Of a DNA stretch of 64,000 nucleotides, positions 9,234 to 35,590 are shown piece by piece. The translations under genes and the position numbers were made by a program. The stretch is from Dyella silvae (GTDB taxonomy: Bacteria; Pseudomonadota; Gammaproteobacteria; Xanthomonadales; Rhodanobacteraceae). The notes below the pieces were generated by a model, which saw only the letters and a list, made by a program, of their open reading frames with translations, was not told the DNA's origin and did not search any database. The DNA lies in contig NZ_JAPJBQ010000001.1 in assembly GCF_026421305.1 (NCBI RefSeq), positions 620,001-684,000 of the forward strand, written 5' to 3'. How positions within the stretch are numbered: the first letter of the stretch is position 1; the number at the start of each line of letters is the position of its first letter.

Positions 9234-9280
9234 GTTTGAAGATCGTGCTGAAGCCAACGGCATGAACGGAGGCTATGGTC

Positions 9281-9796: not shown

Positions 9797-9908
9797 GGCG
9801 ACTCGCAGTCGGCGCGTCCTATCGGCCATGGCCGTAACGATGCGCCATCAAACGTTGGATGGTTGGCATAGATGGTCCAGAAGCGCACTCGCGTGGGGGA
9901 GTGTTACG

Positions 9909-17507: not shown

Positions 17508-17548
17508 ATGCGGCGATAGCCAGTAGCTGTAGGGACAGGAGAGTACGC

Positions 17549-17872: not shown

Positions 17873-17876
17873 TGCC

Positions 17877-18248: not shown

Positions 18249-20800
18249 CCATGTACCTGTGCTGCGACCAGAATCGCCGCACACTGGTGCGCGGTAGCAG
18301 CCTCAATGGCATCGACTGGCTGGACGTGGTGGACCTGGAAGCCCCCACGCCACCGCTGCGGCAACGCCAGCTTCGCGTGGGTTTCGTCAACACCCCGCCA
18401 CCGAGCGCGCTGACGCCAGCCAATTTCACCATCACGGGAGGCGAGCGCATTGTCGGCATCGTGGTCGATCAAGTGACCTACGATGGCCCGGTCGTGGTGC
18501 TGGATCTCAGTGCGTACGGCGATTTCTCTCCCTATGCGCTGCATATCGTCGATTCCAGTGGCAACCCTTTGGCCGGCCTCGACCCTTTGCTGGCGAGCAT
18601 CACCTTCAACTTCAAGGTGGAGTGCCCAACCGACATCGACTGTCAGCAGGCGGTGTGCTGCCGACCACCCGCCGAGCCCTTGCCGCCGATCGATTACATG
18701 GCCAAGGACTATGCAACGTTTCGCCAGCAAATGCTCGATCGCATGAGCGTCACGGCGCCAAGCTGGACTGAGCGCGACGAGGCAGATCCCGGCGTTGCGC
18801 TGGTCGAAGTGCTGGCCTATGTCGCCGATCATTTGAGCTACCAGCAGGACGCCATTGCCACCGAAGCCTATCTGGGCACCGCGCGACGCCGCGTTTCCGT
18901 GCGCCGGCACGCCAAGCTGGTGGACTACGTCATGCACGATGGTTGCAACGCGCGCGCATGGGTCGTCCTTACCGTCGCCTCGGCGGCGGATGGCAAAACG
19001 CTGCCCGGGCCTCAGCCGAGTGGTTTTCCGCCGCAACCCGGCACCCTGCTGGTGACGAAAGTAGCGGACGGCGCCGCGATCGACCTGCTTCATCGCAACG
19101 CGGCGCTTTCAGCGACGCCAACGTGCTTTGAAACCATGCACGACTTGGTGCTGTACAGCGAACTCAACCGCCTCGACTTCTACACCTGGGGCGACGCCCG
19201 CTGTTGTCTGCCGAAGGGCAGCACCTCTGCCACCCTGCTTGCGCCCTCCACCGATATCGACCTGCGCGGCCGCGTGCTGCTGGTGCAGGAGATGCGCAGC
19301 CCGACCACCGGCCTTGCCGCCGATGCCGACACCTCACACCGCCAGGCATTGCGCGTGGTGACGCAAGATCCGTTGCCGGGGCAGCCGGCCAAGACCGATC
19401 CGGTCACTGGCACATCGATTGTCGATATCACCTGGGGGAGTGCCGATGCACTGACTTTTCCCTTATGCATTTCGTCGGTTACCGACGCCGCGCACGGCGG
19501 CGTGCCGCTGAACAACGTGAGCATCGCGTGGGGCAATGTCGTGCTGGCCGACCACGGACTCAGCCAAAGCGTGGAAAGCCTTGGCGCGATGCCGGAGCCG
19601 TCGCTGTATGCCGTCAGCGCCTGCGCGGGCGACCCTTGCCAACCGTCACCAGCCAACGCCATCCCTGCGCGCTTCAACCCTGCCCTCGCGCAATGGCCGC
19701 TGACGCAACAAGGACAGGTGATCGTCGACAGTGTGTTTGAGGGCGAGCCGGAGGCGGCGCTGCTGCCCTTTGATCCCGCTGCGGCCGCCAGTGCCGCGAT
19801 GCAATGGGATATCGCCAATACGGTTCCGGCCATCGCACTGGCCAGCATGGGAGCGGGCGGCACCGAGCTTTGGATGGCGCGGCACGACTTGCTGGAAAGT
19901 CATCCCACGTCACCGGATTTCGTGATCGAGATCGACAGCGACATGCAGGCTCGCTTGCGCTTTGGCGACGATGAGTACGGCCTGCGCCCTGTTGCTGGCG
20001 ACGATTTTTCGGCGGTGTATCGGGTGGGCAACGGTACGGCCGGACTGGTGGGCGCCGGGAGTATCGCCAACGTCGTCGCTCCGTTGACGGGCACGTTGCC
20101 GCCGGGCATTCAAACCGTCACCAATCCACTGCCTTCGCTGGGTGGCATCGATCCAGAAAGCATCGAGAGCGTCCGTCAGTCGGCGCCCGCAGCCTTTCTG
20201 GTGCAGGAGCGCGCAGTGACGCCTGCGGATTACGCCGCGGTCTCGTTGCGCAACCCTTTGGTGTCGGCGGCATCGGCAGACTTCCGCTGGACTGGCAGCT
20301 GGTACACCGTCTTCGACACGGTGGATCGCCCGAATGGCATCGCCGTGGATTTGCCGTTCACCACATCCATAAGAGCCTGGTTGGAACGCTATCGCGTGAT
20401 CGGCCACGACTTGCAGGTCAATGCACCCAGCATGGTGCCGCTGCGGATCGACATGCAGGTGTGTGTGCAATCACCGTGGTTCCGCGCCGATATCGAGCGC
20501 GAGCTGCGACTGCTCTTCGGCACGGGCACGCTGACGGACGGCTCGGATGCATTCTTCAACTCCAACCAGCACACCTTTGGCGAAACGCTCTATCTGAGCG
20601 CGCTTTACGCACTCGCCCAGTCCGTTCCCGGTGTGGATGCCGTCGACATCACGCGATTCGAGCGGCTCTATCAACCGAGCAGCGACGGGTTGACCAAGTG
20701 GAAGCTGACGTTCGCGCAAACGGAAATACCGCATTGTGACAATGACCCGAACTATCCAGGTCATGGCGTGCTGAACCTGACGGTGCGAGGTGGCCAATGA
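18245..20800 (+). CDS. Baseplate assembly protein, J-type (Afp11-like)
   Basis: The 851-aa protein is a putative baseplate assembly protein of the eCIS type. It has PLPPIDYMAKDYATFRQQML near residue 155, then ADPGVALVEVLAYVADHLSY and EAYLGTARRRVSVRRHAKLV, the standard motifs of the first J-like wedge protein, and a gpJ-like core with TNPLPSLGGIDPESIESVRQ and RAVTPADYAAVSL. The N-terminal 140 residues add a beta-rich domain. The ATG overlaps the gp25 stop; ATGA also links it to the next gene. Confidence 0.9.
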   Translation: MTMYLCCDQNRRTLVRGSSLNGIDWLDVVDLEAPTPPLRQRQLRVGFVNTPPPSALTPANFTITGGERIVGIVVDQVTYDGPVVVLDLSAYGDFSPYALHIVDSSGNPLAGLDPLLASITFNFKVECPTDIDCQQAVCCRPPAEPLPPIDYMAKDYATFRQQMLDRMSVTAPSWTERDEADPGVALVEVLAYVADHLSYQQDAIATEAYLGTARRRVSVRRHAKLVDYVMHDGCNARAWVVLTVASAADGKTLPGPQPSGFPPQPGTLLVTKVADGAAIDLLHRNAALSATPTCFETMHDLVLYSELNRLDFYTWGDARCCLPKGSTSATLLAPSTDIDLRGRVLLVQEMRSPTTGLAADADTSHRQALRVVTQDPLPGQPAKTDPVTGTSIVDITWGSADALTFPLCISSVTDAAHGGVPLNNVSIAWGNVVLADHGLSQSVESLGAMPEPSLYAVSACAGDPCQPSPANAIPARFNPALAQWPLTQQGQVIVDSVFEGEPEAALLPFDPAAAASAAMQWDIANTVPAIALASMGAGGTELWMARHDLLESHPTSPDFVIEIDSDMQARLRFGDDEYGLRPVAGDDFSAVYRVGNGTAGLVGAGSIANVVAPLTGTLPPGIQTVTNPLPSLGGIDPESIESVRQSAPAAFLVQERAVTPADYAAVSLRNPLVSAASADFRWTGSWYTVFDTVDRPNGIAVDLPFTTSIRAWLERYRVIGHDLQVNAPSMVPLRIDMQVCVQSPWFRADIERELRLLFGTGTLTDGSDAFFNSNQHTFGETLYLSALYALAQSVPGVDAVDITRFERLYQPSSDGLTKWKLTFAQTEIPHCDNDPNYPGHGVLNLTVRGGQ

Positions 20801-23526
20801 GCGAGCCATCGACCACGCCGTGCGGCGCCTGCGCGGGAGTGACCGCATCGACACCCGCCGGCATCAGCAATCGGCCCGGCCTGCCTTCGGTTTCCGTTCG
20901 GGTGGGCACCTACACGACGTTTTTGCGCAGCATGCTGGCGGGGCTGTCCGATACCGATCGCCCGGCTCTGGTGCCGCTTACCGCGCGCACCAGTGATGAT
21001 TTCTCCATCGCGGTGCTCGATGCCTTCGCCATCGTGGCCGACATCCATACCTTTTATCAGCAGCAGTTTGTTCAAGAGTCCTATTTGCGCACGGCCACCG
21101 AGCGGCGCTCCGTTCTCGAACTCGCACGCCTGATTGGCTACGAACTGAGCCCCGGCGTTGCGGCGCATACCTCGCTTGCTTTTGGCATGGAAACCACGGC
21201 GGGCTCGCCAACCCTCTTGAGCCTGCCGAGCGGCACGCTGGTGCAAAGCACGCCGGGGCCAGGGCAGCAAGCGCAAGCCTACGAATCCATCGAAGCCCTT
21301 ACTGCACAATCGGCATTCAGCGCATTGACCGTACGCCTGACCGAGACCGTCATCCCGCACCAGGGCGATGCCGACATCTGGCTGCAAGGCGCTTCACTGA
21401 GCCTCAAGCCCGGGGACCCACTGGCGCTGGTGGGCAGCGAGAAGGTGCTCGATCCCAACAGTGACCACTGGGATTTCCGGCGCATCGCGTCGGTGGATAG
21501 CGACGCCAAGCGCGGCATCACGCACCTCACCCTCGAAATACCGGTGGCCCCTACCCCGCCCGAAGTGCCAGCCGCACTTCCAGGCGCCTATGCACTGCGG
21601 CGGCAGGCATCGCTGTTTGGATACAACGCGCCTTTATGGGGAGGCCTGCCGGTAGCCCAGCGCATTGGCGAGTACGACCCCCAGCACGGAAACTTCATCG
21701 ATGGCGCCTATGCCGGCCGCAGTTCGAGCTGGGCTGAAGCGGCACTGCCTTCGGGAACCACCCATATCTATCTCGATGCGGTGTACTCGCAGATCACCAA
21801 TGCGTCATGGATCGTGCTTACCGAAGCGGGCTCCCACATCAAGCCGCCTGCCCAGCTCTATCAGGTGACCGACACCGTCGATACGAATCAGGCGGACTTT
21901 GGCATGAGTGGCCGCGTCAGCCGCGTAGGCATAACGGGCAAGCACATCGACTGGTTCTCGCCACGCAATGCCGCCGTCTATGTGCAGAGTGAACGGATTC
22001 CGCTTGCCGAGCGCCCTCTGCTCGACCCCATGGACACCGGCAGCATTCAGTTGAGTGCGCGGGTCGCCGGGCTCGTGGCCGGACAATCCATCATCGTCAC
22101 GGGAAAGCGTGCAAGGGTGTCGGTGCCACCGGCGGTGTCGCTGAGTCTGGAGGCGCAGGATGCGTCGAGTGCGCGAACGCTGGTCTCCGGTGAACAACTA
22201 TTCGTAGTGAGTCTCGGTGCCAAGGCCAGCAACGGCTCGCGTATCTACACCCTGGAGACCATGGATGGCTTTACCGGAACCGTGACGACGGACGACACAC
22301 AGTTGCTGTGGACGCCGCCCGCCGATGCCGATCCCGTGCTGGCCGACCTCACCACCATTGCCGATACCTACGATGCCGACGATTTGCTGCACACCTATAT
22401 CGATGTTGCTACGGCACTGACGCATGCCTTCGACCGGGCATCGGTCATCGTCTATGCCAACGTCGCGGCGGCCACCGCCGGGCAGACCGTGCAGGAACTG
22501 TTGGGCAATGGCGACGCATCGACGCCGTTCCAGAGTTTTACACTGAAGCAACCACCCTTGACGTATGTCGCCGCGGCGACGCCAAGCGGCGTCAAGTCGA
22601 CGCTCAGGGTGTTTTGCAACGATGTCGAATGGTCGCTGGTCGACACGCTGTATGCCCAAGGCCCGCGTGCGAAGGTCTTCACGACACGACGCGACGATGC
22701 GGGCAATACCCGTGTGTTGTTTGGCGATGGCGCGACTTACGGCGCACGACTGGCCACCGGCGCCATGAATGTGCGGGCGATCTACCGGACCGGTATCGGC
22801 AGTGGCGGCAACGTCGATGCCGGACAGGTCAACGTGCTGCTAAGCCGGCCGCTCGGACTGAAGTCCGTCACCAACCCGTTGCCCTCCATCGATGGCGCCG
22901 ATGCAGAACCCCAGGAACAGGCGCGCACCAATGCGCCGCTGAGCGTCTCGACCCTGGGCCGCGCGGTATCCATCAAAGACTACGAAAACTTTGCGCGCGG
23001 CTTCGCCGGTGTTGCCAAGGCGCTGGCGACATGGACATGGGATGGCGCGGTACGCGGCGTGGTGCTGACGCTGGCTGGCATCGATGGCGCTGCCGTACCG
23101 GCGGATGGACAGCTCGCCGGCAACCTCGCAGCGGCCCTGGCGAATTTTGGCGATGCGACCATACCGGTCAATCTTCAGAGTTACGCGCCCATCACCTTCC
23201 AGCTCGGCATCAACATCCTGCCCGCGGACCCCACCGCGCTTGCTGAAACACAGCAGGCGGTGACAAATGCGCTGCGGTTGGCCTTCAGCTTCCATGCGCG
23301 TGACTTCGGTCAATGGGTCAGCTTGTCGGAAGTGCTGGAGGTGGCGCAGAACGTCGCTGGCGTCCAGGCCGTGCAGATTACCCAGCTCTATCGCAGCGGA
23401 GACACACCCGGACTTAATCCATTGCTGGCAGCGGCAACAACGCCATCAGGCGGACAAGGCGCCGCGCCGGCTGTGCTGCTCACGCTCGATCCAGGCCCCC
23501 TCGTCAACATGGGAGCGATGAACTGA
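20797..23526 (+). CDS. Baseplate assembly protein, second J-type (Afp12-like)
   Basis: The 909-aa protein has GISNRPGLPSVSVRVGTYTT near the N-terminus, DDFSIAVLDAFAIVADIHTF and QESYLRTATERRSVLELARL, then a gpJ-like domain with TNPLPSIDGADAEPQEQART and RAVSIKDYENFARGFAGVAK. It pairs with the preceding J-type protein to form the baseplate wedges. The C-terminal region resembles the variable half of Afp12. It is coupled on both sides: ATGA upstream and a TGATG overlap with the next gene. Confidence 0.9.
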   Translation: MSEPSTTPCGACAGVTASTPAGISNRPGLPSVSVRVGTYTTFLRSMLAGLSDTDRPALVPLTARTSDDFSIAVLDAFAIVADIHTFYQQQFVQESYLRTATERRSVLELARLIGYELSPGVAAHTSLAFGMETTAGSPTLLSLPSGTLVQSTPGPGQQAQAYESIEALTAQSAFSALTVRLTETVIPHQGDADIWLQGASLSLKPGDPLALVGSEKVLDPNSDHWDFRRIASVDSDAKRGITHLTLEIPVAPTPPEVPAALPGAYALRRQASLFGYNAPLWGGLPVAQRIGEYDPQHGNFIDGAYAGRSSSWAEAALPSGTTHIYLDAVYSQITNASWIVLTEAGSHIKPPAQLYQVTDTVDTNQADFGMSGRVSRVGITGKHIDWFSPRNAAVYVQSERIPLAERPLLDPMDTGSIQLSARVAGLVAGQSIIVTGKRARVSVPPAVSLSLEAQDASSARTLVSGEQLFVVSLGAKASNGSRIYTLETMDGFTGTVTTDDTQLLWTPPADADPVLADLTTIADTYDADDLLHTYIDVATALTHAFDRASVIVYANVAAATAGQTVQELLGNGDASTPFQSFTLKQPPLTYVAAATPSGVKSTLRVFCNDVEWSLVDTLYAQGPRAKVFTTRRDDAGNTRVLFGDGATYGARLATGAMNVRAIYRTGIGSGGNVDAGQVNVLLSRPLGLKSVTNPLPSIDGADAEPQEQARTNAPLSVSTLGRAVSIKDYENFARGFAGVAKALATWTWDGAVRGVVLTLAGIDGAAVPADGQLAGNLAAALANFGDATIPVNLQSYAPITFQLGINILPADPTALAETQQAVTNALRLAFSFHARDFGQWVSLSEVLEVAQNVAGVQAVQITQLYRSGDTPGLNPLLAAATTPSGGQGAAPAVLLTLDPGPLVNMGAMN

Positions 23527-25739
23527 TGTTCGATATCGAAACCGTTTATGCCCTGCTGCCGGCGTGGACGCGTTCGCGTGACGCACTGCAAGGCGGCGCG
23601 CTCAAGGACTTCCTGTCGGTGATCGTCGACCAGGTGGCAACGCTGGAAGAGGATCTCGCGCAGAACTACGACAACCTGTTTATCGAAACCTGCGCGCCCT
23701 GGGTCGTGCCCTATATCGGAGATCTGGTACAGGCCACGCCGCTGACAGACGAAACACGGGTCGTTCCGTCCACCACCATCGCCGCGTTGACCACCGACCT
23801 GGTCGGCCCGATCTTTCTCCCTGGCATTGGCTTGCGCTCACGCGCGGACGTGGCCAAGACCATTTACTACCGGCGTCGCAAAACCACCCTGCCGATGCTG
23901 GAACAGCTTTCGTCCGACGTCACGGGCTGGGCCGCGCACGTGCGCGAGTTTTTCGTGACGCTGGCCTGGACACAGGCGGTTCGCAATCACGTACGGCTCG
24001 ACAGCTTTTACGCACCGGACCTGCGCAGCATCCCCGACATCGATCGCATCAACGGCCCCTTCGATACCGCGCCGCGCGTGGTGGATGTACGCACGCCACG
24101 TCAACTGGAGGGTTGGCACAACATCCCGAACGTCGGCATTTTCCTGTGGCGCCTGATCAGTTCGCCGCTGTATCAGGCCGCCGCGCGCATCGATGCCAGC
24201 AGCGGCGGCAGTGGCTTTCATGTCAGTGCGCTGGGCCAGGATGCGCCGATGTTCACGCGCTGGCAGTCCAGCCTGGACGCCACCTTGCCCAGCGCCGAAC
24301 CGTTACTGCCGGGCCCTGTTCGCCCCGCCGCGTTCTACGACGATCTCACGCAATACGCAGCCGCCGGAAGCACTGCTCCTTACACGCAGTATTACGGGCG
24401 TTTTGGCCTGGACCTGCCCACGCCAGGCGTGCCTGCAGGCAGTTTCTTCATCGTGGCCGATGGTACGGCCGTGCCTCCTGCCCAGATTCAGAGCATGAAT
24501 CTTTCGCAATGGCGGCAACCGCCGGCAACGATGGTCGGGGTGGATGTTGCATTGGGGCGCCTGAGTTTCGGCACCGCATGGGCGGCTGCCGGCCTGTCGG
24601 GACCCAAACAAGTGCGCGTCAGCAGCTTCCTTGGGTTTCCGGCGAACCTCGGCGGCGGTGGTTATGACCGGCAGAACTGGCTGGTCAATCGCACCATGCC
24701 GGGCCTGCAAGTGTTCACCGTCGGCACGGGCGGCACCTATACAACCCTTTCAGCCGCGCTCACCGCCGCTGCCGGCATCCAGAACGTACTGATCTCGATT
24801 CAGGACAGCAACACCTATGCAGAGCCGCTCAATATCGAGCCAGTGGATGGCGGCTCGCTCACCATCGAGGCCGCCGATCAGCACTGGCCGCACGTACAGG
24901 GCGCGGTGACGATTAACGGCGCTCACCCGACCGCGACGGTTACGTTATCGGGCCTGCTGATGGAAGGCGCAGTGCAAATTGCCGACAGCCTGTCCCGCTT
25001 TCGCCTGATCCACACGACGCTCGTGCCCGGCCTGGCCATCGACACTCCACCGCCGTCACCGGTGTTGCCAAGCCTGGTTGCACAAAACGCCGACACGCCC
25101 ATCGATATCGAACTCATCTTCAGCGTCAGTGGCCCCGTGCAAATGGCGCCACTGGAAAGCAGCCGCCTGTGGGTGCTCGACAGCATCATCGACGGCGTGA
25201 ATGGGCCGGCCGTGACCGGACTGAGTGGCACGCCCAACTGGGGGCCGCCCGCTTGGATCGAGCGCAGCACGCTGGTAGGTGCAACCTGGTTCCGCCAACT
25301 GATCACGGCGACCGAGGCGCTGTTTACCGACGTCGTGTCGACACTGCATCGGCAGCAAGGGTGCGTGCGTTTCAGCTTTGTGCCGGATGGATCGAGCACC
25401 CCGCGCCGCTACCGTTGCCAACCCGACCTGGAGATAAGCAGCGAAGTCGACAAGGCCACGGGAGGTGGCCCGCCGCTGACGGATGCCCAGATCAAAGTCA
25501 TTCACGATCACGTCGTGTCATGGCTGTTACCCGCTTTCACCCAACGCAACTACGGACAACCCGCCTATTTGCAGCTGCACTTGCATGCGCCACGACAGAT
25601 TCGCGAAGGCGCGCAAGACGGCTCGGAAATGGGCGTCTATTGCCACCTCAAACAACCGCAAGCGCTGAAGAACCTGCAAATAAGGTTGCAGGAATATCTG
25701 CCTTTCGGTCGCGAGGCCGCCACCCTGTTCGTTACCTGA
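23526..25739 (+). CDS. Tail protein I-like baseplate protein with C-terminal beta-helix
   Basis: The 737-aa protein begins MFDIETVYALLPAWTRSRDA and has the gpI/Afp13-adjacent pattern YDNLFIETCAPWVVPYIGDL and TIYYRRRKTTLPMLEQLSSD in residues 45-140. From about residue 390 (QVFTVGTGGTYTTLSAALTA, DGGSLTIEAADQHWPHVQGA) it turns into a right-handed beta-helix-like region. Tail protein I links baseplate and fibres; the fused helix may be a fibre attachment or receptor module. It precedes the 1113-aa beta-helix protein, and the two probably touch. Confidence 0.82.
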   Translation: MFDIETVYALLPAWTRSRDALQGGALKDFLSVIVDQVATLEEDLAQNYDNLFIETCAPWVVPYIGDLVQATPLTDETRVVPSTTIAALTTDLVGPIFLPGIGLRSRADVAKTIYYRRRKTTLPMLEQLSSDVTGWAAHVREFFVTLAWTQAVRNHVRLDSFYAPDLRSIPDIDRINGPFDTAPRVVDVRTPRQLEGWHNIPNVGIFLWRLISSPLYQAAARIDASSGGSGFHVSALGQDAPMFTRWQSSLDATLPSAEPLLPGPVRPAAFYDDLTQYAAAGSTAPYTQYYGRFGLDLPTPGVPAGSFFIVADGTAVPPAQIQSMNLSQWRQPPATMVGVDVALGRLSFGTAWAAAGLSGPKQVRVSSFLGFPANLGGGGYDRQNWLVNRTMPGLQVFTVGTGGTYTTLSAALTAAAGIQNVLISIQDSNTYAEPLNIEPVDGGSLTIEAADQHWPHVQGAVTINGAHPTATVTLSGLLMEGAVQIADSLSRFRLIHTTLVPGLAIDTPPPSPVLPSLVAQNADTPIDIELIFSVSGPVQMAPLESSRLWVLDSIIDGVNGPAVTGLSGTPNWGPPAWIERSTLVGATWFRQLITATEALFTDVVSTLHRQQGCVRFSFVPDGSSTPRRYRCQPDLEISSEVDKATGGGPPLTDAQIKVIHDHVVSWLLPAFTQRNYGQPAYLQLHLHAPRQIREGAQDGSEMGVYCHLKQPQALKNLQIRLQEYLPFGREAATLFVT

Positions 25740-25752
25740 GCGGAGAACCATT

Positions 25753-28700
25753 ATGGCCGGGGACTACTCCCGCATCGCGAATGGGCTCTACAAGCACTAC
25801 GCCGAGGTGCTGATGCAGCAAGGCCGGGCCCATCTGGACGCCGACTGGAACAGCATGGCGCACTTCGCTGCGCGACGCTGGGATACGCAGGCTGCCGACA
25901 CCTTCGGCCCGGCGGCCGTGCCGACGCTGACCACGCCCAACGGCTTCAAGATCACTGCCACCAGCAGTGGCACCGACCTGGCCATCGGCGTCGGCCGCTG
26001 CTATGTCGACGGCATTCAGGCTGAGCTGTTCAACGGTGAGACCGTCAACGGTCAGCCGGTGACGTATCTCAATCAACCCTTCTATCCCAACCCACCGGCC
26101 ATCAGCGGCAGCGGCCTGGTGTATCTGGACGTGTGGAAGCGCGAAGTCACTTACATCGAGGATCCCGATCTGCTCGATGTTGCACTGGGCGGCGTGGACA
26201 CCACCACGCGCATCCAGACGGTGTGGCAAGTCAAACTGCTCTCGAGCGCTTCGGCAGGAAACACCCAGCTTTCGTGCAGCACCGACCTGAGCGGACTGCT
26301 GCCGCCGTCGGCCGGGCAGATTTCCACCCAGGCGGTTGCGCCCGTGGCGCCCACCGATCCGTGCATCCTGCCGGACCAGGGTGGCTATCGTGGCATCGAG
26401 AACCGCCTGTACCGGGTAGAGATTCATACGGCCGGCGACATCAGCAGCGCACGCTGGAAATGGTCACGCGAGAACGCGTCGATCGTCAGCCGCATCACGG
26501 GCATAACCAACGCCGCCACAAGCTGCAAGCTCACCGTCGATCGCATCGGGCGCGATGCCGTGCTGCGCTTCAAGGCGAATGACTGGGTGGAGATCATCGA
26601 CGACGCCACCGAGCTGGCGGGACTGCCTGGGACCATGGCGCAAATTGTCGGTCCACCCGATGAAACCACCCGAAGCATCACACTGGATCGGCCGTTACCG
26701 GCCAGCTTCAACGCCGCCGACCCTGCGCGTCACACGCGACTGATCCGCTGGGACCAGTCGCAAGGCGTCGACAGCAATGGCCTGCTGCCCATCACCGCAG
26801 GCTGGATGGATCTCGAAGATGGTGTGCAAGTTGCGTTGACACTGGATGGCACTGTCACCAACGGGCAATTCCACACGGCAGACCATTGGTGTTTCGCGGC
26901 GCGCACCATCGACGCTTCGGTGCAGACGCTGACCAAGGCGCCGCCGCTTGCCATCCATCACCACTTCGCTGTGCTGGCCAGCTATACGACCTCGGGCAGC
27001 ACCGTGACAGTGGGCAGCGATTGCCGGGTGCCGTGGCCACCGAACGTGCCGACGGAAACGGGTTGTGGCTGTACCGTGTGCGTGGACGCGACGGACCACA
27101 ACGCCGGCACCGCCACCATCGAGATGGCTATCGAGAAAGTCCGCAGCACGGGTGGGCGCATCTGCCTCGGGCCGGGCGTGTTCCACCTCGGCGCAACACT
27201 GATGATGGAGAACCTGAGTGCCGTGACTCTCTACGGACAAGGGCCGTCCACGGTGTTGTTGTTTGCGGGCGACGGACCTGCCGTGCAAATCGCCACGGGC
27301 CTCGGGCTAAGCATCGAGGAACTCACTGTGCTGGCCGTTGCCATTGCACCCGGCGCAACGCTCGCGAGTGGCGCCCCCGCACCCGCGAGCATTCCGGTAG
27401 CCATCGGCATCCTGCTGCGCAACTCGGCGGAGATTGCGATCGAACGTTGCGGCATTCTGGCCGTGTCGTCCACATCCAATAAAACCGCGGCCGCAGCGCC
27501 CGCGCCAGCGCCTGCGAGTGGGCTGGAAAATGCGGTCATTGCCTATCAAGCCCCACTCGCCAGCTCATTCAACCCCGGCGGCATGGCCATTGCGCTGGAT
27601 GGATTTCTGCTGGAAGTGCTGATTCGCGACAACGTGCTGGTGGCTGATCTTGGCGTCGGCAAGCTTGGCCTGCTCCTCAACAACACCGCAGCTGGCGCTA
27701 CCGTGGCCAAGGGAACGACGCTTGCGGCCGTTCGCGACATCCTGATGGCGGGTGACCTGGAGATCATCGACAACTGGATGCCGTGCGCCCTGGCGGGCAT
27801 TGGCATTGCCGATCTCAACAGCGATACCGCACTGAGCGCGTTTCTGTTGGAGATCTCCTTGTCGGCCAACCGCTTCCTGGGTTGCCGTACGGCCGGCATC
27901 GGCATTGAAGGCGTCGCTCTACCCGATGCGGTGGTGCGGATCGAGCGAAACCACGTTGATGTGCAAGGCATCGGTATCGTTTGCGGCACCGATGGACTGG
28001 TCGTCTCCGACAACTTCATCACTCAGGCGATGAGTGGCGCGAACGCTTCGACGCTTGGGAAAACCAACGTGCAGTTGCTCCCCGCCGCGATTCAGATCGG
28101 CTCGGTGCCTGGCGGCAAGCTCCCGGTGACCGAGGCGCACGTCAGCCGCAATCACATCACGCTCTTCGGCGGCCCAGGCATTCAGGTGACGGGTGCCGTA
28201 CTGGTCAGCTCCATCATCGAGAACTCGATCACCGAAGTCACCGGGCACGGCATTCTGGCCTCGGGCACAGGCACGCCCTCGGAAATCATCATCCGCAACA
28301 ATGAAGTACTTGCCGTACTCGAACCTCCCGCCCCGCCGTCGAACCTGGCCAGCAACAACCTGACCGGCACCTTCGCCAGGGAATACCTGAAGGCCGATAT
28401 CAGCCGCCAGGCATCGGCCACGGCGGCCATCGTCGGCATCGAAGTCGTCGGCATTCCCACCACGGTGATCCAGAACAACACCGTGGGCCTGGTCGGCAAT
28501 GCCGCCAATCAGCCCATCGCAGCCGCAGGCATTCTGCTGCAGAAGGTGCAGGCAGCCACGGTGTCGGGCAACGACATCAGCGACATCGGGGTGCCCGGGT
28601 CGCTGGATCAGCCAAGCTACGGCATCGCAGTGGCATCCGCCTTCACCCAGCTGGTCGCCTCAGACAACCTGGTGCGCCAGAACAGTACCGACACCTCGCA

Positions 28701-29094
28701 AACCGGGCGATTCACCGCGCTCTTCATCAATGACGCCAACGGCACCGGGGAGATGTTCACGGCCGAAGGCAACATGATGTCCGGCAACAGTGCCGTCCCG
28801 CTGGTCAATATCGGCCATAGCGGCCATTGCCTGTTTACGGGCAATGCGTGCAACCAGTTCAACACGCAGCAAACTGGCGAACCGGCTGCTCAGTTGACGT
28901 GCGACACCGCCATCGCCGGCAATAACCGCATAGTGTGCGCCAACACCCAGACGGGGCTCGCCATCACCGTCAGCACCAGCGACCCCAAGGCGCCGCCGCC
29001 CGCCACGGTGCTAGGCAACATCGTCAGCCATGCCATCACTCTCAATGGCGCGGCGCTGGGCACGCCATGGGCGCCACTGAACATTCTGACCTGA
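25753..29094 (+). CDS. DUF6519 and beta-helix protein, probable tail fibre/surface protein
   Basis: The 1113-aa protein opens MAGDYSRIANGLYKHYAEVL and MQQGRAHLDADWNSMAHFAA, the DUF6519 pattern seen in CIS and phage-like loci. A Cys-rich joint (GCGCTVCVDATDHNAGTATI, near residue 436) leads to about 650 residues of right-handed parallel beta-helix repeats, with recurring segments such as AIQIGSVPGGKLPVTEAHVS and IENSITEVTGHGIL. There is no signal peptide. Position after the baseplate genes and the elongated fold suggest a fibre or host-recognition part; an enzyme acting on polysaccharide is an alternative. GGAGA lies 6 nt upstream of the ATG. Confidence 0.8.
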   Translation: MAGDYSRIANGLYKHYAEVLMQQGRAHLDADWNSMAHFAARRWDTQAADTFGPAAVPTLTTPNGFKITATSSGTDLAIGVGRCYVDGIQAELFNGETVNGQPVTYLNQPFYPNPPAISGSGLVYLDVWKREVTYIEDPDLLDVALGGVDTTTRIQTVWQVKLLSSASAGNTQLSCSTDLSGLLPPSAGQISTQAVAPVAPTDPCILPDQGGYRGIENRLYRVEIHTAGDISSARWKWSRENASIVSRITGITNAATSCKLTVDRIGRDAVLRFKANDWVEIIDDATELAGLPGTMAQIVGPPDETTRSITLDRPLPASFNAADPARHTRLIRWDQSQGVDSNGLLPITAGWMDLEDGVQVALTLDGTVTNGQFHTADHWCFAARTIDASVQTLTKAPPLAIHHHFAVLASYTTSGSTVTVGSDCRVPWPPNVPTETGCGCTVCVDATDHNAGTATIEMAIEKVRSTGGRICLGPGVFHLGATLMMENLSAVTLYGQGPSTVLLFAGDGPAVQIATGLGLSIEELTVLAVAIAPGATLASGAPAPASIPVAIGILLRNSAEIAIERCGILAVSSTSNKTAAAAPAPAPASGLENAVIAYQAPLASSFNPGGMAIALDGFLLEVLIRDNVLVADLGVGKLGLLLNNTAAGATVAKGTTLAAVRDILMAGDLEIIDNWMPCALAGIGIADLNSDTALSAFLLEISLSANRFLGCRTAGIGIEGVALPDAVVRIERNHVDVQGIGIVCGTDGLVVSDNFITQAMSGANASTLGKTNVQLLPAAIQIGSVPGGKLPVTEAHVSRNHITLFGGPGIQVTGAVLVSSIIENSITEVTGHGILASGTGTPSEIIIRNNEVLAVLEPPAPPSNLASNNLTGTFAREYLKADISRQASATAAIVGIEVVGIPTTVIQNNTVGLVGNAANQPIAAAGILLQKVQAATVSGNDISDIGVPGSLDQPSYGIAVASAFTQLVASDNLVRQNSTDTSQTGRFTALFINDANGTGEMFTAEGNMMSGNSAVPLVNIGHSGHCLFTGNACNQFNTQQTGEPAAQLTCDTAIAGNNRIVCANTQTGLAITVSTSDPKAPPPATVLGNIVSHAITLNGAALGTPWAPLNILT

Positions 29095-29129
29095 GCGAGA
29101 TCACCTGACTGGGTTCCGGAGTAAATCGC

Positions 29130-29528
29130 ATGCAGATCGTGTCCTTATCCAACGAAACCACCGTGGCCGACCTGGCCTCACGCGTTTACGGCCTGAAGGC
29201 AAAAGACCCGCGCCTTGCCGGAGCGAGCGCCGCATTGACTGCCTCCAACCCAGCGCTCAGGGGCGACATCAGCAAGCTTCCCGCCGGCACTCCCGTCGTC
29301 GTGCCACCGATATCGGATCTGAGCGTCAGCACAGCGAACAGCATCAACCCTCAACGCGAGGCGCTGTTGACCACACTCAATCAACTGGGGAGGTCGGTGA
29401 AACAGGCGTCCGCCGCGCAATTGGCGGGTGTCACCGAGGGGTTGAGCCACAGCCAGGCACCGGCGCGCGCCGCGGCCATCCAGACGCTGAATGACGACGT
29501 GGCGGCGTTCGTCAAATTCCACGGCTGA
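29130..29528 (+). CDS. Small LysM-like protein of the CIS operon
   Basis: The 132-aa protein begins MQIVSLSNETTVADLASRVY and shows a LysM-like layout in its first 60 residues (DLASRVYG, then LTASNPALRGDISKLPAGTP and VVVPP). The second half is helical (ALLTTLNQLGRSVKQASAAQ). There is no signal peptide, so it is likely a cytoplasmic or particle component rather than a cell-wall protein. It sits between the fibre-like gene and the toxin genes and could help cargo loading or attach to the particle; that is inference. GGAG lies 8 nt upstream. Confidence 0.65.
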   Translation: MQIVSLSNETTVADLASRVYGLKAKDPRLAGASAALTASNPALRGDISKLPAGTPVVVPPISDLSVSTANSINPQREALLTTLNQLGRSVKQASAAQLAGVTEGLSHSQAPARAAAIQTLNDDVAAFVKFHG

Positions 29529-29583
29529 GCCGCATGGAGCAGCCGGGCAGCGCTTGATGGGCAAGTCCCGCGGGAGCGCGTCA

Positions 29584-31203
29584 ATGAAACGCACATGGCC
29601 CTCTCTCACAAAAAAACCTTCTACTGAAGCGATCGCTCCGCCGGCCAGACTTCCGGAAGTGCCCAGATGCACGCAGGAAGCACCGGGGAAGACCGGCCCC
29701 GCTGGCCAATTCGATCTCAGCGCGATCAGTGTCGGACCGCCACCAGCAACATCTCCCCTTGAGGCCACGCCCTCCACCGGCAACGCCATGGATACAGCCA
29801 CCCGCTCGCCATTGGAGCAACGCCTGGGCCAGGATTTCAGCAACGTCCGCATTCACACCGAAGCCGGCACCCACGTGGACAGCCAGGGTGCACGGGCAGT
29901 CACCGTTGGCGAGCACGTTTTCTTTGGCACCGATCGCTATTCGCCTGAAACCGTCACTGGGCGCCACCTGCTTGCGCATGAACTGGCTCACGTCGCACAG
30001 CAACGCTCAACCGCAGGCACAACGGACGACTCAGCCACCGAGATGCGGTTCGACTCAGCCGAGCGCGAAGCATCGAACGCTGCATCCACCGTGCTGACGG
30101 GTGCCCCTGTACAAGTCCGCACCAGCATGGCCGCTGGCACGATACAGGCCAGCGCAATCAGCGACGAGGTCGACGACTGGCTGGCCAAGGGGAGCAAGGC
30201 CAAGGTCTTCGACGTACTGCGCGCGCACGGCGCATTCAAAACGCCCGACGCCGACTTGAACAAGGTGCTCGACAAAACCTTTGGCCCAAATACCGACCCG
30301 GCAACGACGACCGACAACCGCTGGCTGGCCGACCGGTTGATCGAGTTCGGCCCCGAGCCCATGTGGCCGTTGGCCGCGATCACAGAGCGCGAGCGGCGGG
30401 CGCACGGTCATCACTGGGGAAAGGAAGCGGGCAATATTGAGGGCACATTCGATGCCGGCCCCGGCAAACAGTTGATCCATGCGTTCTACTTTCCGGGCAC
30501 CAGCGACAAGCGGGCCATGATCATTGGCGGCGTGCATGGCGATGAAACGGCGGGCGTGGATGTGGTGAATCGCCTGCTCGCGCAAATGACCGCCCCCGGC
30601 GCGGCCACGCCGTTCTATTCCGTCATCATCGTACCCAAGCTTTTTGGTACCAATGTCGACGCTAAACGCCGCAAGACACCGGGGGAAGCCGACCCCAACC
30701 GGCAGATGCCCAAACTTGGCGCCGGCGTCGACCCCGCCAAGAACCAGGATTCGGAAGGGCGCACGATCGAACCGGAGAATCTCGTGCTGCTCGACCTGAT
30801 CGAACGCTTTCAACCCGAACGCATCGCCAGCGTCCACGGCCACGGCAAAAAAGGGCCGGGTGCCGCAAGCATCACCTCGGATCCGCGCCCCGGCAAAGAC
30901 GCAGACGACAACGCACTGGCACTGAAGATGGCACACGAGGCCAAAAGCCTTGGTGCGCGAGTACCGGGCAACAAACTCGGCACCAAAGGCGAAACCGCCA
31001 CCTACCCTACCGATAAGTCACCGCATGAAAAGGGCGTCAGTTTCGGTAGCTACGCATCGCACGCGACAACCACAAGACCCGCCATGAACGCCATTCTGAT
31101 CGAGACGCCGGGAAAGCCCGTAGGCAAGTTGACTGCCGCTCGCACCGTCGAGCTTGAAGCGCTTGCCACGGTGTTGCGGGATATTTTTCTCGGCGCGCCT
31201 TAG
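29584..31203 (+). CDS. eCIS cargo protein: eCIS_core (DUF4157) and M14 zinc carboxypeptidase
   Basis: The 539-aa protein has a disordered N-terminus (1-70), an eCIS_core domain at about 73-140 (FSNVRIHTEAGTHVDSQGAR, HELAH at 132-136) and a C-terminal M14 peptidase domain at about 290-530. The M14 set looks complete: HGDE (H318, E321) and a third His (H418 or H420) as zinc ligands, substrate-binding N372-R373 in DPNRQMP, catalytic E507 in LIETPG. M14 enzymes remove C-terminal residues or cleave peptidoglycan peptides. The eCIS_core domain marks proteins loaded into CIS particles. The ATG at 29584 has GGAG 7 nt upstream. Confidence 0.87.
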   Translation: MKRTWPSLTKKPSTEAIAPPARLPEVPRCTQEAPGKTGPAGQFDLSAISVGPPPATSPLEATPSTGNAMDTATRSPLEQRLGQDFSNVRIHTEAGTHVDSQGARAVTVGEHVFFGTDRYSPETVTGRHLLAHELAHVAQQRSTAGTTDDSATEMRFDSAEREASNAASTVLTGAPVQVRTSMAAGTIQASAISDEVDDWLAKGSKAKVFDVLRAHGAFKTPDADLNKVLDKTFGPNTDPATTTDNRWLADRLIEFGPEPMWPLAAITERERRAHGHHWGKEAGNIEGTFDAGPGKQLIHAFYFPGTSDKRAMIIGGVHGDETAGVDVVNRLLAQMTAPGAATPFYSVIIVPKLFGTNVDAKRRKTPGEADPNRQMPKLGAGVDPAKNQDSEGRTIEPENLVLLDLIERFQPERIASVHGHGKKGPGAASITSDPRPGKDADDNALALKMAHEAKSLGARVPGNKLGTKGETATYPTDKSPHEKGVSFGSYASHATTTRPAMNAILIETPGKPVGKLTAARTVELEALATVLRDIFLGAP

Positions 31204-31320: not shown

Positions 31321-33372
31321 ATGGGAACGCAATTCACACCGCCCTCGCGACGACAGAACAAAACCGAGAGTGCGCAGAGTCCGAAGCGCGATCACGTGCA
31401 GACCTCACGGTCGAGCACGACGCCTCGACCGAATACATCCGTCACGGAAAGGAGTGATGAGCTCCCTTCCCACACCCATTCCCTCGAGGGAATTTCCGTC
31501 CTCCCACCGCAGCGAAGCGCAGAGACAACGCCACCCTCCGAGATGCCACTACTGATCGGATCCACCATCGATCCACTCGAAGCAGCCGCGGAACACGCAG
31601 CCGCCACGTCCGACAAAGCGTCGATAAGCAACGCCACGGCCCCGCGCTCGGGACAGGAAGCACCACCCATCGTCCGGGAGGCTCTGGCCGCGCCGGGCCA
31701 CCCGCTTGCAACGCCCGTCAGAACCCGGTTCGAGGCACGGTATCAGCACAACTTTTCGGGCGTGCGGCTGCACTCGGATGGCGTTGCCGCCCGCTCTGCC
31801 GCAGCCATCGGAGCTCAGGCCTATACGGTGGGCGAGCACATCGTATTGGGATCAAGCGCATCGCCGCCGGCTGTCCTTGCCCATGAGCTCGCTCATGTCG
31901 TTCAACAAAGCAGTGCATCCATGCCGTGGGTGCAGCGGCAACCTCTGACCAACACGCCACCTGCGCCACGAAAGGATTTCGTGTTCCTGATGGGAGAAGA
32001 CAAGAGGGGCACCAAAAACCCCTTCTTTGAAGCGGCATCCATTTACTTTCATGCACACGTCCCCGCTGCAACCTTTGTCACGGACCAGCGCACGATGGAG
32101 GGTTTGCTCAACTGGATCTCGGCCAACGTGAAAGATCCCATTGGCAACCTGTATATCGTTTCCCACGGCAACGAGGATGGCACGCTGTCATTTGGCATTG
32201 GCTCCTCCGCCAAAATGATGGTCCTCGATCTGCGCAATGCGCTACACCCCTCCGGCGGAGGGCCAAGCAGCCTTCCCAGCCTCCCCTCAAACATTATCGA
32301 CGAACAGACAACCATCCATATCAAGGGCTGCGACATAGGCCGAACACGGGAGATGGTCGTACTTATCGACGAAGCGTTTGGTGGCAAAGCCACGGTGACT
32401 GCACCCACGCACGAACAGAAATATCAAGACGATCCAGCGCTTGGCGCAGCGGCTCGCAAGACAGCACACGACCAGCAAATGTCGACCTTTACTGCAGGGT
32501 TGCCCGCCCTACCCCCAAAGCCGGCAGCCGTGGATCCCAAACTGAAAGGCGATGCACGCAAAAAGGCGCAGGCGGACTTCAAGCAAGCCGAGCAAGCGTT
32601 GAAAAAGGCGCAGGACGATCGCACCAAGGCAATCGCTGATGAAGAAAAACGCATCAAACCCGGCCTCGATACCATCGAGAAAGAGGCGGGCGTCGTGGAT
32701 TCGCTTTCTGGACCGATGTTCCAGCGACCCGGCACCAAGCTGTTCACCGAAGGTGAACTCAAGCCAGACATAGACCGACTGTATGGACACCTGTCAGAAG
32801 ATCAACGCAAGTCGCTTGCGAAGAACCTGGTCGCCCGCGATCGCGGCGTAAAGGGTGATCAGCAGGGCCAGAAGATCGACCGTTTGGAATTTCCATCGGC
32901 ACCCGTTGAGGAGCCAGCCTCATTGCAGGAAGTACTTGCCATCCACGGAAAGGAGTTGAAGGACGACCATTTCCAGGCAAAGTCCATCCAATCCACAAGG
33001 AAAACGGGCCCCTCTGGCACCGAGCTAACCATCACCATCAGCGGTGTCTCGCACCCACCGGACAAGGACCCGTTTGATGACACGCGCCCCCTTTCATTAA
33101 CGATACCGGACGACAAGAGCATTATTGACGGCGGCAAGGCGAAAACTAATAACCCAGACCGTTACGCGTGGCACGTCGAGCGCAGGCACGCGAGCTCTGG
33201 CTTCACGACCCTGGTAGCCGTGGGCGAGCGCGTCGTGGCGTACCTGCATCATGGCTCGCTGGACGCAGCGCCGCACGACCATTTCAGCAAACCAGAGAGC
33301 GACGCGAACTTCTACACCACCGTCACGCCTCCGCCACCACCGCCGGCAGGATCGGGCACAACGAAGCCCTGA
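31321..33372 (+). CDS. eCIS cargo protein: eCIS_core (DUF4157) and caspase-like domain
   Basis: The 683-aa protein has a long disordered N-terminus, an eCIS_core domain at about 125-195 (FSGVRLHSDGVAARSAAAIG, HELAH at 188-192), and then a domain with FVFLMGEDKRG (220-230), NLYIVSHGNEDG (276-287, His282) and TTIHIKGCDIGR (330-341, Cys337). A His-Gly after one beta strand and a Cys after the next is the catalytic layout of clan CD cysteine peptidases such as caspases and gingipains. A Lys/Ala-rich coiled coil (about 405-455) and a C-terminal domain of unknown fold follow. No immunity gene is evident. AGAGG lies 5 nt before the ATG. Confidence 0.82.
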   Translation: MGTQFTPPSRRQNKTESAQSPKRDHVQTSRSSTTPRPNTSVTERSDELPSHTHSLEGISVLPPQRSAETTPPSEMPLLIGSTIDPLEAAAEHAAATSDKASISNATAPRSGQEAPPIVREALAAPGHPLATPVRTRFEARYQHNFSGVRLHSDGVAARSAAAIGAQAYTVGEHIVLGSSASPPAVLAHELAHVVQQSSASMPWVQRQPLTNTPPAPRKDFVFLMGEDKRGTKNPFFEAASIYFHAHVPAATFVTDQRTMEGLLNWISANVKDPIGNLYIVSHGNEDGTLSFGIGSSAKMMVLDLRNALHPSGGGPSSLPSLPSNIIDEQTTIHIKGCDIGRTREMVVLIDEAFGGKATVTAPTHEQKYQDDPALGAAARKTAHDQQMSTFTAGLPALPPKPAAVDPKLKGDARKKAQADFKQAEQALKKAQDDRTKAIADEEKRIKPGLDTIEKEAGVVDSLSGPMFQRPGTKLFTEGELKPDIDRLYGHLSEDQRKSLAKNLVARDRGVKGDQQGQKIDRLEFPSAPVEEPASLQEVLAIHGKELKDDHFQAKSIQSTRKTGPSGTELTITISGVSHPPDKDPFDDTRPLSLTIPDDKSIIDGGKAKTNNPDRYAWHVERRHASSGFTTLVAVGERVVAYLHHGSLDAAPHDHFSKPESDANFYTTVTPPPPPPAGSGTTKP

Positions 33373-33412: not shown

Positions 33413-35590
33413 TCAATCGACGAAGCTGGTCGGGGTTCTCGGTTTCAGGATATCGGCCCAGTCATCGGCCGGGGCATTGAACTGCTTGACGACGCGAAGG
33501 TCGCGCTCCGTACTGCCTGTGATTGGCGCAACCTTGGGATCCCGTACGGCCAGTTCCAGCAGGAAACTTCGCTCCACATTGGCGTTGTCATGCGTACCAC
33601 CAGGGAATTTGGCCGTCATCTCGGCCGACGTGGCGTTGGCTGTTTCGAAGGCAATGACTTGCGTCTCGGTCTTCAACGGATCGAGGAGATTCATAGCGGC
33701 AGAGAACTTGCGGGTGAACCCCTCCGACAAGGCAACGTCGATTTGCGAGACAGGATGCTTGGCCTCATCGGGCGACGCCGGGTCGACGTCGGTTTTCAAA
33801 TGGACGGTCAACTTCTGGACCTTCGACCAAAAGGGCATCGATTTGTCGAAGCGCATGTTCGAGAAACTGGGCTGCGGCACCTTCCAGTCGTTCGGATTGC
33901 GGAACAACTGGACATAGATCAAATGCAGATTTAGCCCCAGCGCCCAGGTGCTATTTAGCTTTTCGTATGCGGCCTTGGCGCCTTCCTCGGCAGGTTTGCG
34001 GGACGGCGCCGTGACTCCGCCGACGGTAGTGCCCGCAGGAATAAAGGGCTGAAAAGTCGGCGGTGTAGTCGCTGGCGTGACCGGGAATGCGTTGTCGCTA
34101 GTCGGATCCAGGATGCGCCAAGGGACGACCTCAAAGTGCGCCGAATTGGCGAGTTTCTTGATATTCGGTTGCGACTGGAAGCCAGTCGCCGTGATGTAAA
34201 GATCGTCTTTGACGTCAGCGTTTCCCGCATGCAGGCTCTCATGAACGAGCGTCACTACGGAATCATTGTCATCAGGGCTGTCGATGACGTCGGGGCTGAG
34301 ACGAATGATCTCGTGAAAACCAGTCAACCCACCCTGAGAGACCTCGCCTGAATAACCGGATCGATCGGTAACGATTTTGTTGGTGGTATTGAGTTTGTTC
34401 ATCCATTTGCGGCCTTCGGCGTACTTTGCTTTGGCAGTGGCAAGGTTTGCGTCACCGAAGACCTGCTTGATGTTGGGGTCCTGAGCGCCCGAGGCAATCG
34501 TGTTGAAAATGGCGTCGGCGTTGGCGACCACCTTGGTGATGTTGGCCGCGTCTGGTGTCGCCGGTCGAGGCCCGGTATCGATCAGAGCCGGATCACCCAA
34601 CTTGGCATCAGGGAAAAGCGCGACGATGGCCTTGGCCTGTCTGCTCAGTTGTTCCGCGCGCGGCAGCGCTTTGAAATCGGCCTCCGACAAGGGACCCAGA
34701 CGATTGGTCAGCACCGTTGCCTGGTCAGCGGGCGAAAGCTCATCCATCGCGAGGGCGAGCACCCGCTCAGCGCCCGCTAAATCGGCGGCAATGTTTGCCG
34801 TCGATGCGAGAAGAGCGCCAAGGTTGGGTGGAATCCGCCGCAGCTGGATCACCGGTGAAGAAATGGTCATCGACGCGTCATTGGGATCGACATGTTGCAT
34901 GTGTCGTCCTTTCCCTGGCGATGCGTCGAGCAGAGCTTCACTCGATTGTCCGCGCACCACGCGATCTGCCACTTCGTCAGCATGTCTTTCGTAGGCATCC
35001 CCCGCCTGCCCCACGCCACCGGCCATCTCCATGCGTGTGCGCTGCTGAATGACGTGAGCGGCTTCGTGTGCCGCAGTATGCAGGCTTGGTGCACGCGCAA
35101 ATGTCACCGTCGATCCACGAGTGTATGCCTCCGCCCCGAGTGCAAGCGCTGCGGCCGCTGCTTCCCGACCCTTGTGCACGCGTACATGTGAGAGATCGTG
35201 GTGACCGAATGACTTTTGAATGGTCTCAAGGAAAGGAAGCGGCTCACCAAAGGGAGAGGCGTTGAACTGCGTTTGTCGCTCCCTGCGGGTTCGCTGCACT
35301 CCCACCGGATCACGATGCGCGCTCGTGGCATTTACCGAACGACTCGGCACAGGTGTGATGGGAATGCTCGCGACATCGAATGCATGGCCGGTCGCAACGG
35401 AGCCCCCGGTTTCCCCTTGCATCCCATCCAACACGAGCGCCTGGGATCGGGATGGATCGCCACCTACAGTCGAAGCATGCTCACGAGCTTGCTCATGCGC
35501 GGATCGGCCCTTGAGCAGATGAGCCGCCTGAGGTGGCCGCTGCGCCACCCCCTTCACGGTTCCAGACTGGATCCATTGGCGCGCACTCAT
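33413..35590 (-). CDS. eCIS cargo protein: eCIS_core (DUF4157) and second HExxH zincin
   Basis: The 725-aa protein has an eCIS_core domain at about 108-185 ([25 protein letters not shown] at 175-179) followed by [14 protein letters not shown], a helical region, and a second metallopeptidase motif [11 protein letters not shown] with HESLH at 450-454. A later AHFEVVPWR (about 484-492) may give a third zinc ligand, the pattern of eCIS-linked zincins. The gene is convergent with the preceding toxin and has its own upstream gap, so it is probably transcribed separately. GAGAGG lies 8 nt before the ATG. Confidence 0.83.

What the first reader, a model, noticed from the sequence alone, without database searches (positions are those of the whole stretch)
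31321..33372. eCIS cargo with a caspase-like His/Cys dyad
After the eCIS_core domain come two strands ending in SHG and KGCDIG, the catalytic layout of clan CD cysteine peptidases. The protein then continues with a coiled coil and a C-terminal domain that could be a target-binding or autoinhibitory part. An injected caspase-like protease would be a striking effector.
Basis: partly seen in the sequence, partly recalled or inferred. Interest (0 to 1): 0.8.

Follow-up and report, generated by a model that had tools for sequence, protein, structure and literature searches.

The report
eCIS cargo with His/Cys peptidase-like domain
A bacterial protein that looks like cargo of a phage-tail-like injection machine carries an unnamed domain whose conserved histidine and cysteine are laid out as in caspase-type proteases, so it may be an injected protease, although neither its fold nor its activity has been shown.

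Summary
Window 31321-33372 encodes 683 aa: eCIS_core (Pfam E=1.4e-22), an unannotated domain (218-370) with His282 in VSHG and Cys337 in KGCDIG, a charged helical stretch and a C-terminal domain, beside an eCIS operon. I hold 20 complete distinct copies of the domain, this one included. Both residues are kept in 20 of 20, though 9 copies came from a scan whose pattern required the His. Cys337 is the only cysteine. A crude prediction gives the clan CD element order. Profile comparison links the domain to DUF4347, His on His and Cys on Cys (0 of 200 shuffles; the dyad columns carry much of the score). One DUF4347 protein passes Pfam's Peptidase_C80 cut-off; one member of this family matches C80 below it (E=0.005). 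Relation to caspases (C14) or CHAT is not established. Structure prediction never completed, so the distance between the residues is untested. Verdict: eCIS cargo with a probable clan-CD-like cysteine peptidase domain of an unnamed family; "caspase-like" fits the layout, kinship to caspases is not shown. Target cutting or self-cutting is open.

The parts
31321..33372 (+). 683-aa eCIS cargo-type protein (P0001)
   Evidence: ORF and translation; relative L033 at 58% identity
31702..31917 (+). eCIS_core (DUF4157) domain, residues 128-199, with HELAH at 188-192
   Evidence: Pfam PF13699 E=1.4e-22; both His of HExxH in 13 of 13 eCIS_core rows of A3
31972..32430 (+). putative clan-CD-like cysteine peptidase domain, residues 218-370
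   Evidence: 20 complete distinct copies counting this one; profile relation to DUF4347
32164..32166 (+). His282, putative catalytic base at the end of predicted strand 3 (VSHG)
   Evidence: 15 of 15 distinct rows of A4, plus L024, L025, L027, L029 and L098; the scan required this His, 11 of the 20 copies were found without that
32329..32331 (+). Cys337, putative nucleophile at the end of predicted strand 4 (KGCDIG); only Cys of the protein
   Evidence: the same 20 of 20 copies
   Evidence: present in 3 of 14 aligned proteins; no coiled-coil predictor was run
32707..33369 (+). C-terminal domain, residues 463-683, no Pfam match
   Evidence: homologous between two eCIS groups (3 against 8 sequences), score 36.6, null maximum 24.1, 0/100; no Pfam match at E up to 1
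7224..29528 (+). eCIS operon (sheath, tube, baseplate, Pvc16, AAA ATPase, spike OB domain, baseplate J, DUF6519, Phage_tail_X-like protein, and genes without Pfam match)
   Evidence: Pfam matches; the Phage_tail_X match is sub-threshold (E=0.023); 3 of the operon ORFs scanned had no match
29491..31203 (+). neighbouring eCIS_core protein with weak AstE/AspA / Peptidase M14-like region
   Evidence: Pfam, NCBIfam; the peptidase-like matches are below cut-off
33413..35590 (-). neighbouring eCIS_core protein, convergent, weak SprT-like match
   Evidence: Pfam; SprT-like E=0.034, below cut-off

Best explanation
P0001 is a cargo protein of the adjacent extracellular contractile injection system. The eCIS_core part marks it as cargo (inferred from published association). 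The middle domain is a cysteine peptidase of the clan-CD layout: a parallel sheet with His282 at the end of strand 3 activating Cys337 at the end of strand 4. After injection it most likely cleaves proteins of the target cell; the C-terminal domain probably positions substrate or controls activity. Shown: gene, eCIS_core, operon, conservation of the two residues, profile kinship to DUF4347. Inferred: fold, catalysis, loading, injection, substrate.
For: eCIS_core in the protein and an eCIS operon beside it. Recognisable eCIS structural genes within 8 kb in 9 of 13 named loci; a tenth (L035) has only relatives of two other operon genes. Cys337 in 20 of 20 and His282 in 20 of 20 complete distinct copies (His unbiased in 11), while identity to the window falls to about 20%. 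Single cysteine. A propensity average roughly gives beta1-alpha1-beta2-alpha2-beta3-His...alpha3-beta4-Cys-alpha4-beta5, the caspase/haemoglobinase core order of PMC4357240 (passages). The C80 peptidase of MARTX has V-G-C up to its nucleophile and a His-Cys spacing of 49 (PMC4357240 section 14); here I-K-G-C and 55 (54-68 in the 13 named loci). hhalign to DUF4347 E=2.8e-4, His on His and Cys on Cys, 0 of 200 shuffles. DUF4347 touches C80: protein L099 matches both models above their cut-offs (DUF4347 1.3e-50; C80 24.1 bits against 23.8), L101 and L104 match C80 below it, as do 6 of 16 sampled DUF4347 members. Member L009 of the present family matches C80 below cut-off over 13-138 of 154 positions (E=0.0051).
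Against: The middle domain of P0001 matches no Pfam peptidase model (at E up to 1, at E up to 10). Of 13 distinct family proteins scanned, one (L009) matched C80. hhalign to C14: 25 of 200 shuffles as good, 2 of 60 in a second run; to CHAT 2 of 60, over 17 columns round the His only. Much of the DUF4347 signal rests on the dyad: with those two columns masked the score falls from 42.8 to 20.4, which 1 of 200 shuffles of the unmasked alignment exceeds. No structure was obtained. The scan that gave 13 named loci used a pattern holding the His. The Gly after His, usual in clan CD (recalled), is Ala or Ser in many members. No activity of DUF4347 is known to me. No PDB chain matched credibly (best 0.015 over 33 residues). 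The secondary-structure estimate is crude.
Confidence: 0.6

Rival explanations
1. The domain is a self-processing module, as the cysteine peptidase domain of MARTX toxins is: it cuts the cargo itself after delivery, freeing the C-terminal part from the eCIS_core loading part, and the C-terminal domain is the actual effector.
For: It lies between eCIS_core and a C-terminal region in the window protein and the 12 eCIS_core relatives aligned. C-terminal parts vary: L035 continues with about 650 aa without Pfam match. Lead to C80, the self-processing family. No other enzymatic domain is recognised in the C-terminal parts of the window, L023, L034 and L035 proteins.
Against: C80 has a beta-flap in place of helices 4 and 5 (PMC4357240 section 14), whereas a helix is predicted right after Cys337 (crude). 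Relatives without eCIS_core (L005-L008, L034) have no loader to be released from. I identified no conserved cleavage site and ran no search for one.
Confidence: 0.25
2. The domain is a clan-CD-like or DUF4347-like fold used as a structural or binding module; the His and Cys are kept for folding or for another thiol reaction (acyl or ubiquitin-like transfer), not proteolysis.
For: DUF4347, its nearest described relative, lies mostly in very large open frames and is named a domain of unknown function; the 4 papers that mention it showed no function in their listing. The Gly after His is not kept in all members.
Against: His282 and Cys337 are the only polar residues invariant in 15 of 15 rows, as expected of a catalytic dyad.
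Confidence: 0.2
3. The residues are a chance resemblance and the domain is an unrelated alpha/beta enzyme, such as a metallo-beta-lactamase-like or Cys-phosphatase domain.
For: The sister group has SHAHPD, and profile search gives short NDM hits at E=0.015; Cys337 and Arg343 happen to have CX5R spacing in the window protein.
Against: The NDM hits cover about 33 residues, and the second His and the Asp of HxHxD are not conserved. The Arg at +6 is not conserved.
Confidence: 0.08

Closest known systems
DUF4347 (Pfam PF14252)
   Same: VSHG ... YGCD motifs, His and Cys invariant in 16 of 16 members of A5; hhalign E=2.8e-4, probability 41%, 0/200 shuffles
   Different: Pfam DUF4347 matched none of the 13 distinct family proteins scanned at E up to 10; A5 members keep Thr, Asp, Ser and GG-W columns after the Cys that are not seen here
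Peptidase C80 (cysteine peptidase domain of MARTX-type toxins, clan CD)
   Same: His then Cys, spacing 49 (PMC4357240 section 14) against 55; member L009 below cut-off, E=0.0051; DUF4347 protein L099 above cut-off
   Different: P0001 has no match; a helix is predicted after the Cys instead of a beta-flap; no InsP6 pocket was looked for
Caspase family C14 and CHAT
   Same: Same order of His and Cys; hhalign puts them on the C14 dyad
   Different: C14 score not clearly above shuffles (25/200, 2/60); CHAT 2/60, His region only
eCIS_core (DUF4157) cargo toxins (PMC11297309, PMC8213781; passages read)
   Same: eCIS_core in the protein, eCIS operon beside it; [quoted passage not shown] 'peptidase' among functions in PMC8213781)
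   Different: No domain of this family is named in the passages I saw; the word caspase occurs in neither main text

Membership tests
eCIS cargo (eCIS_core / DUF4157 protein) | eCIS_core domain above Pfam cut-off | tested here: met
   80.1 bits against cut-off 22
eCIS cargo (eCIS_core / DUF4157 protein) | linked to eCIS structural genes | tested here: met
   window operon; 9 of 13 named loci with structural genes within 8 kb, L035 with relatives of two other operon genes, L030, L033 and L034 with none found
eCIS cargo (eCIS_core / DUF4157 protein) | loaded and injected | not testable with these tools
   needs particles
clan CD cysteine peptidase | invariant His, then Cys | tested here: met
   20 of 20 complete distinct copies; for His, 11 of 11 copies found without requiring it
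clan CD cysteine peptidase | His and Cys at the ends of adjacent strands of the caspase/haemoglobinase core | tested here: inconclusive
   propensity average gives roughly the right order; structure job never completed
clan CD cysteine peptidase | sequence match to a clan CD family | tested here: inconclusive
   none for P0001; L009 to C80 below cut-off; indirect link through DUF4347; C14 and CHAT not clearly above shuffles; other clan CD families only through Pfam scans
clan CD cysteine peptidase | peptidase activity | not testable with these tools
   needs protein
Peptidase C80 | Pfam PF11713 above cut-off | tested here: not met
   no match for P0001; 17.5 of 23.8 bits for L009
Peptidase C80 | beta-flap and InsP6 pocket | tested here: inconclusive
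   helix predicted after Cys337 speaks against the flap; the pocket was not tested
Peptidase C14 (caspase, metacaspase) | match to PF00656 or its profile | tested here: not met
   no Pfam match; profile score 25/200 and 2/60 against shuffles
DUF4347 | Pfam PF14252 above cut-off | tested here: not met
   no member of A1 matched; related at profile level only

The most novel reading that the evidence does not exclude
This is a new clan-CD peptidase family, related to DUF4347, with eCIS-linked members (Rhodanobacteraceae, Variovorax, Paraburkholderia) and eCIS_core members elsewhere (an Acidobacteriaceae MAG), and members without eCIS_core next to VWA genes. The injected members would be contractile-particle cargo with a caspase-type fold, not reported in the papers I could search, either cutting target-cell proteins or releasing their own C-terminal payload after delivery.
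Probability: 0.4. Interest if true: 0.75.

Novelty: new variant of a known kind. Interest (0 to 1): 0.55.

Why it matters
Many eCIS_core cargo proteins have no recognised enzymatic domain (1130 predicted toxins carry DUF4157, 983 of them without another annotated domain; PMC11297309, passage). A defined pair of residues in a cargo domain turns one such protein into a testable enzyme. If it is a clan-CD peptidase, it also gives an enzymatic lead on DUF4347, a domain named as of unknown function that occurred in 36 of 100 genomes sampled in the phylum.

Tried and rejected
Single-protein scans of genome contigs and viral contigs with the domain gave no relatives; tblastn on plasmids gave none; the alignment scan of viral contigs gave none. 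PDB searches with the protein and with profiles A1 and A4 gave nothing credible; the NDM hits are a short SHAHPD resemblance. PADLOC: no match for the 4 proteins scanned. NCBIfam: no match for P0001 and none for 6 of 7 relatives; L009 matched through its VWA part.

C-terminal regions of 5 relatives without eCIS_core against 11 eCIS types: no detectable relation (31 of 100 shuffles as good). Search for a conserved partner or immunity gene (12 of the 13 loci, L025 left out, ORFs of 60 aa or more, window with 8-kb flanks): clusters holding the window and at least two other loci were eCIS operon or eCIS_core genes, the gene itself and antisense frames; 40 nt separate the gene from its convergent neighbour. 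DUF4347 against C14 scored high (31.7, 0 of 60) but aligned non-catalytic segments, so I do not count it; DUF4347 against CHAT 1 of 60, His region only. Reversed-profile controls: 12.5 for DUF4347, 14.5 for C14. Metallo-beta-lactamase (HxHxD) and Cys-phosphatase (CX5R) readings were rejected because the other residues are not conserved.

Rows dropped before counts: L012, L004, L018, L019 are the same genes as L035, L030, L028, L023; L020 ends at a contig edge before the His; L010 and L011 were weak partial hits not recovered by the profile; L022 is DUF4347. L024 and L025 are nearly identical and not independent. One CHAT row of 20 was skipped by a length/stop filter; L025 was left out of the C-terminal comparison.

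Full report
Check of the observation. ORF 31321-33372 (+) encodes 683 aa. Pfam finds eCIS_core at 128-199 (E=1.4e-22); its other two entries are weak (E=0.3 and 0.9) and do not touch the middle domain. NCBIfam finds nothing. The gene follows an eCIS operon with sheath, tube, baseplate, Pvc16, AAA ATPase, OB-fold spike, baseplate J and DUF6519 genes and is flanked by two further eCIS_core proteins.

Relatives. A whole-genome search with residues 211-680 found matches in 9 of 148 related genomes, the window's own included and several weak. A profile of 8 domain sequences (A1) found 8 of 233 genomes of the same family, own included, and 3 of 398 of the phylum, own included, one of which is a DUF4347 protein; the larger profile A4 found 3 of 369 of the class, own included. 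The 19 other genomes of the genus listed had no match, so the gene looks accessory. A scan of genome contigs with a five-sequence alignment gave 13 named loci: Tahibacter soli, Tahibacter aquaticus, six Variovorax (one a MAG), Dyella lipolytica, Paraburkholderia silviterrae, and MAGs labelled Proteobacteria, Acidobacteriaceae and Anaerolineae. Plasmid and viral collections gave none.

Conservation. Complete distinct copies number 20: the window, L023-L035 (13), L005-L009 (5) and L098 (1). His282 and Cys337 are present in 20 of 20. The pattern of the scan contained the His, so for the nine copies known only from that scan (L024, L025, L026, L027, L029, L031, L032, L033, L034) its presence is partly by selection; the other 11 came from the window or from whole-genome searches that did not require it. 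The pattern did not contain the Cys. In the 15 distinct rows of A4 only His282, Cys337, Val359 and Ala361 are invariant. Family members lacking a residue would have counted against the reading; none was found. The Gly after His is not invariant: it is Ala in most of the sister group and Ser in L034 and L009.

Architecture, in groups (the tree gives weak support, 3 of 18 inner branches starred). (1) Window, L033 (58% identity) and L032 (42%; with a longer linker): eCIS_core, domain, charged helical stretch, C-terminal domain. (2) L023-L031: eCIS_core, about 116 extra residues (measured in L023), domain, C-terminal domain, no helical stretch. The C-terminal domains of (1) and (2) are homologous over 158 columns (3 against 8 sequences, score 36.6, null maximum 24.1, 0 of 100). 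(3) Proteins without a recognised eCIS_core: L005-L008 lie next to a VWA gene and L009 is fused to a VWA domain; L009 scores below the cut-off of the NCBIfam model for marine proteobacterial sortase target proteins. Their C-terminal parts show no detectable relation to the eCIS ones (31 of 100). L034 (Anaerolineae) also has none. L035 and L098 carry eCIS_core; L035 continues with about 650 aa without Pfam matches. Recognisable eCIS structural genes lie within 8 kb in 9 of 13 loci, and L035 has relatives of two other operon genes; none were found at L030, L033 (whose contig ends soon after the gene) or L034.

What the domain is. A propensity average over the 15 rows gives roughly strand, helix, strand, helix, strand-His, helix, strand-Cys, helix, strand, the order of the caspase/haemoglobinase core, where the dyad sits at the ends of strands 3 and 4 (PMC4357240, passages). 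This is a crude predictor. Profile-profile comparison with DUF4347 gives E=2.8e-4, probability 41%, with His on His and Cys on Cys (a second DUF4347 set gave 1.4e-4, 53%). In a gap-trimmed version the score is 42.8 against a maximum of 21.6 in 200 column shuffles; masking the dyad columns lowers it to 20.4, which 1 of 200 shuffles of the unmasked alignment exceeds, so much of the signal is the motif itself. Pfam Peptidase_C80 is matched below its cut-off by L009 (E=0.0051, 13-138 of 154) and by 6 of 16 DUF4347 members (best 0.018). Protein L099, from a genome of the window's own bacterial family, matches DUF4347 (1.3e-50) and passes the C80 cut-off (24.1 against 23.8 bits); L101 and L104 match both, C80 below cut-off. 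So the chain this family - DUF4347 - C80 (clan CD) is supported step by step, the last step marginally. C14 (25 of 200; 2 of 60) and CHAT (2 of 60) are not clearly distinguishable from shuffles, though the C14 alignment does put the dyad on the dyad. The domain is best described as a probable clan-CD-like cysteine peptidase family near DUF4347, not as a caspase.

Missing test.

Mechanism. Most likely: cargo carried by the particle, peptidase active after injection, acting on target-cell proteins. The self-processing alternative (as in MARTX cysteine peptidase domains, PMC4357240 section 14) remains serious because the domain sits between loader and variable C-terminal parts; against it, a helix rather than a beta-flap is predicted after the Cys, and relatives without a loader exist. 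No immunity-like partner gene was found conserved nearby in the 12 loci compared, which would fit a target other than close kin, but this is weak evidence.

Prior literature. Searches of the paper library for eCIS with caspase (20 of 144 listed), eCIS with DUF4157 (15 of 15), DUF4347 (4 of 4), clan CD or cysteine protease with contractile injection (10 of 135), eCIS with caspase-like (2 of 2), eCIS with autoproteolysis (10 of 719) and DUF4157 with cysteine protease (3 of 3) showed, in titles and abstract openings, no paper on such a cargo; most of the longer lists were not seen. In PMC11297309 and PMC8213781 (passages) the word caspase does not occur, but both report peptidase-type eCIS cargo in general (46 predicted proteins annotated as proteases or peptidases in the first). 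The novelty claimed is therefore the domain family, not the idea of a protease cargo. The library lacks most subscription journals and holds no bioRxiv preprints, so this is not proof of absence.

Added: the selection of the His by the pattern, the second C14 run, the DUF4347/C80 double match.

Noticed in passing
window 29491-31203 (+): Second eCIS_core protein with a weak succinylglutamate desuccinylase / zinc carboxypeptidase-like stretch (E=3e-5, just under cut-off), possibly a wall- or peptide-cutting cargo.
   Followed up: no
window 33413-35590 (-): Third eCIS_core protein, convergent with P0001, with a weak SprT-like match (E=0.034).
   Followed up: no
L005-L009, L020: Relatives of the domain without eCIS_core lie directly beside (L005-L008) or fused to (L009) a VWA domain (L020 by eye only); a possible separate peptidase system in the window's order.
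   Followed up: partly
   Followed up: no
L099, L101, L104: DUF4347 proteins that also match Peptidase_C80, one above the curated cut-off: DUF4347 may be an unrecognised clan-CD peptidase family.
   Followed up: partly
L033: The closest relative of the window protein (58% identity) is in an Acidobacteriaceae MAG, suggesting horizontal transfer or mis-binning.
   Followed up: no
L023-L031, between eCIS_core and the domain: An extra segment of about 116 residues is conserved in the sister group and absent from the window protein.
   Followed up: no
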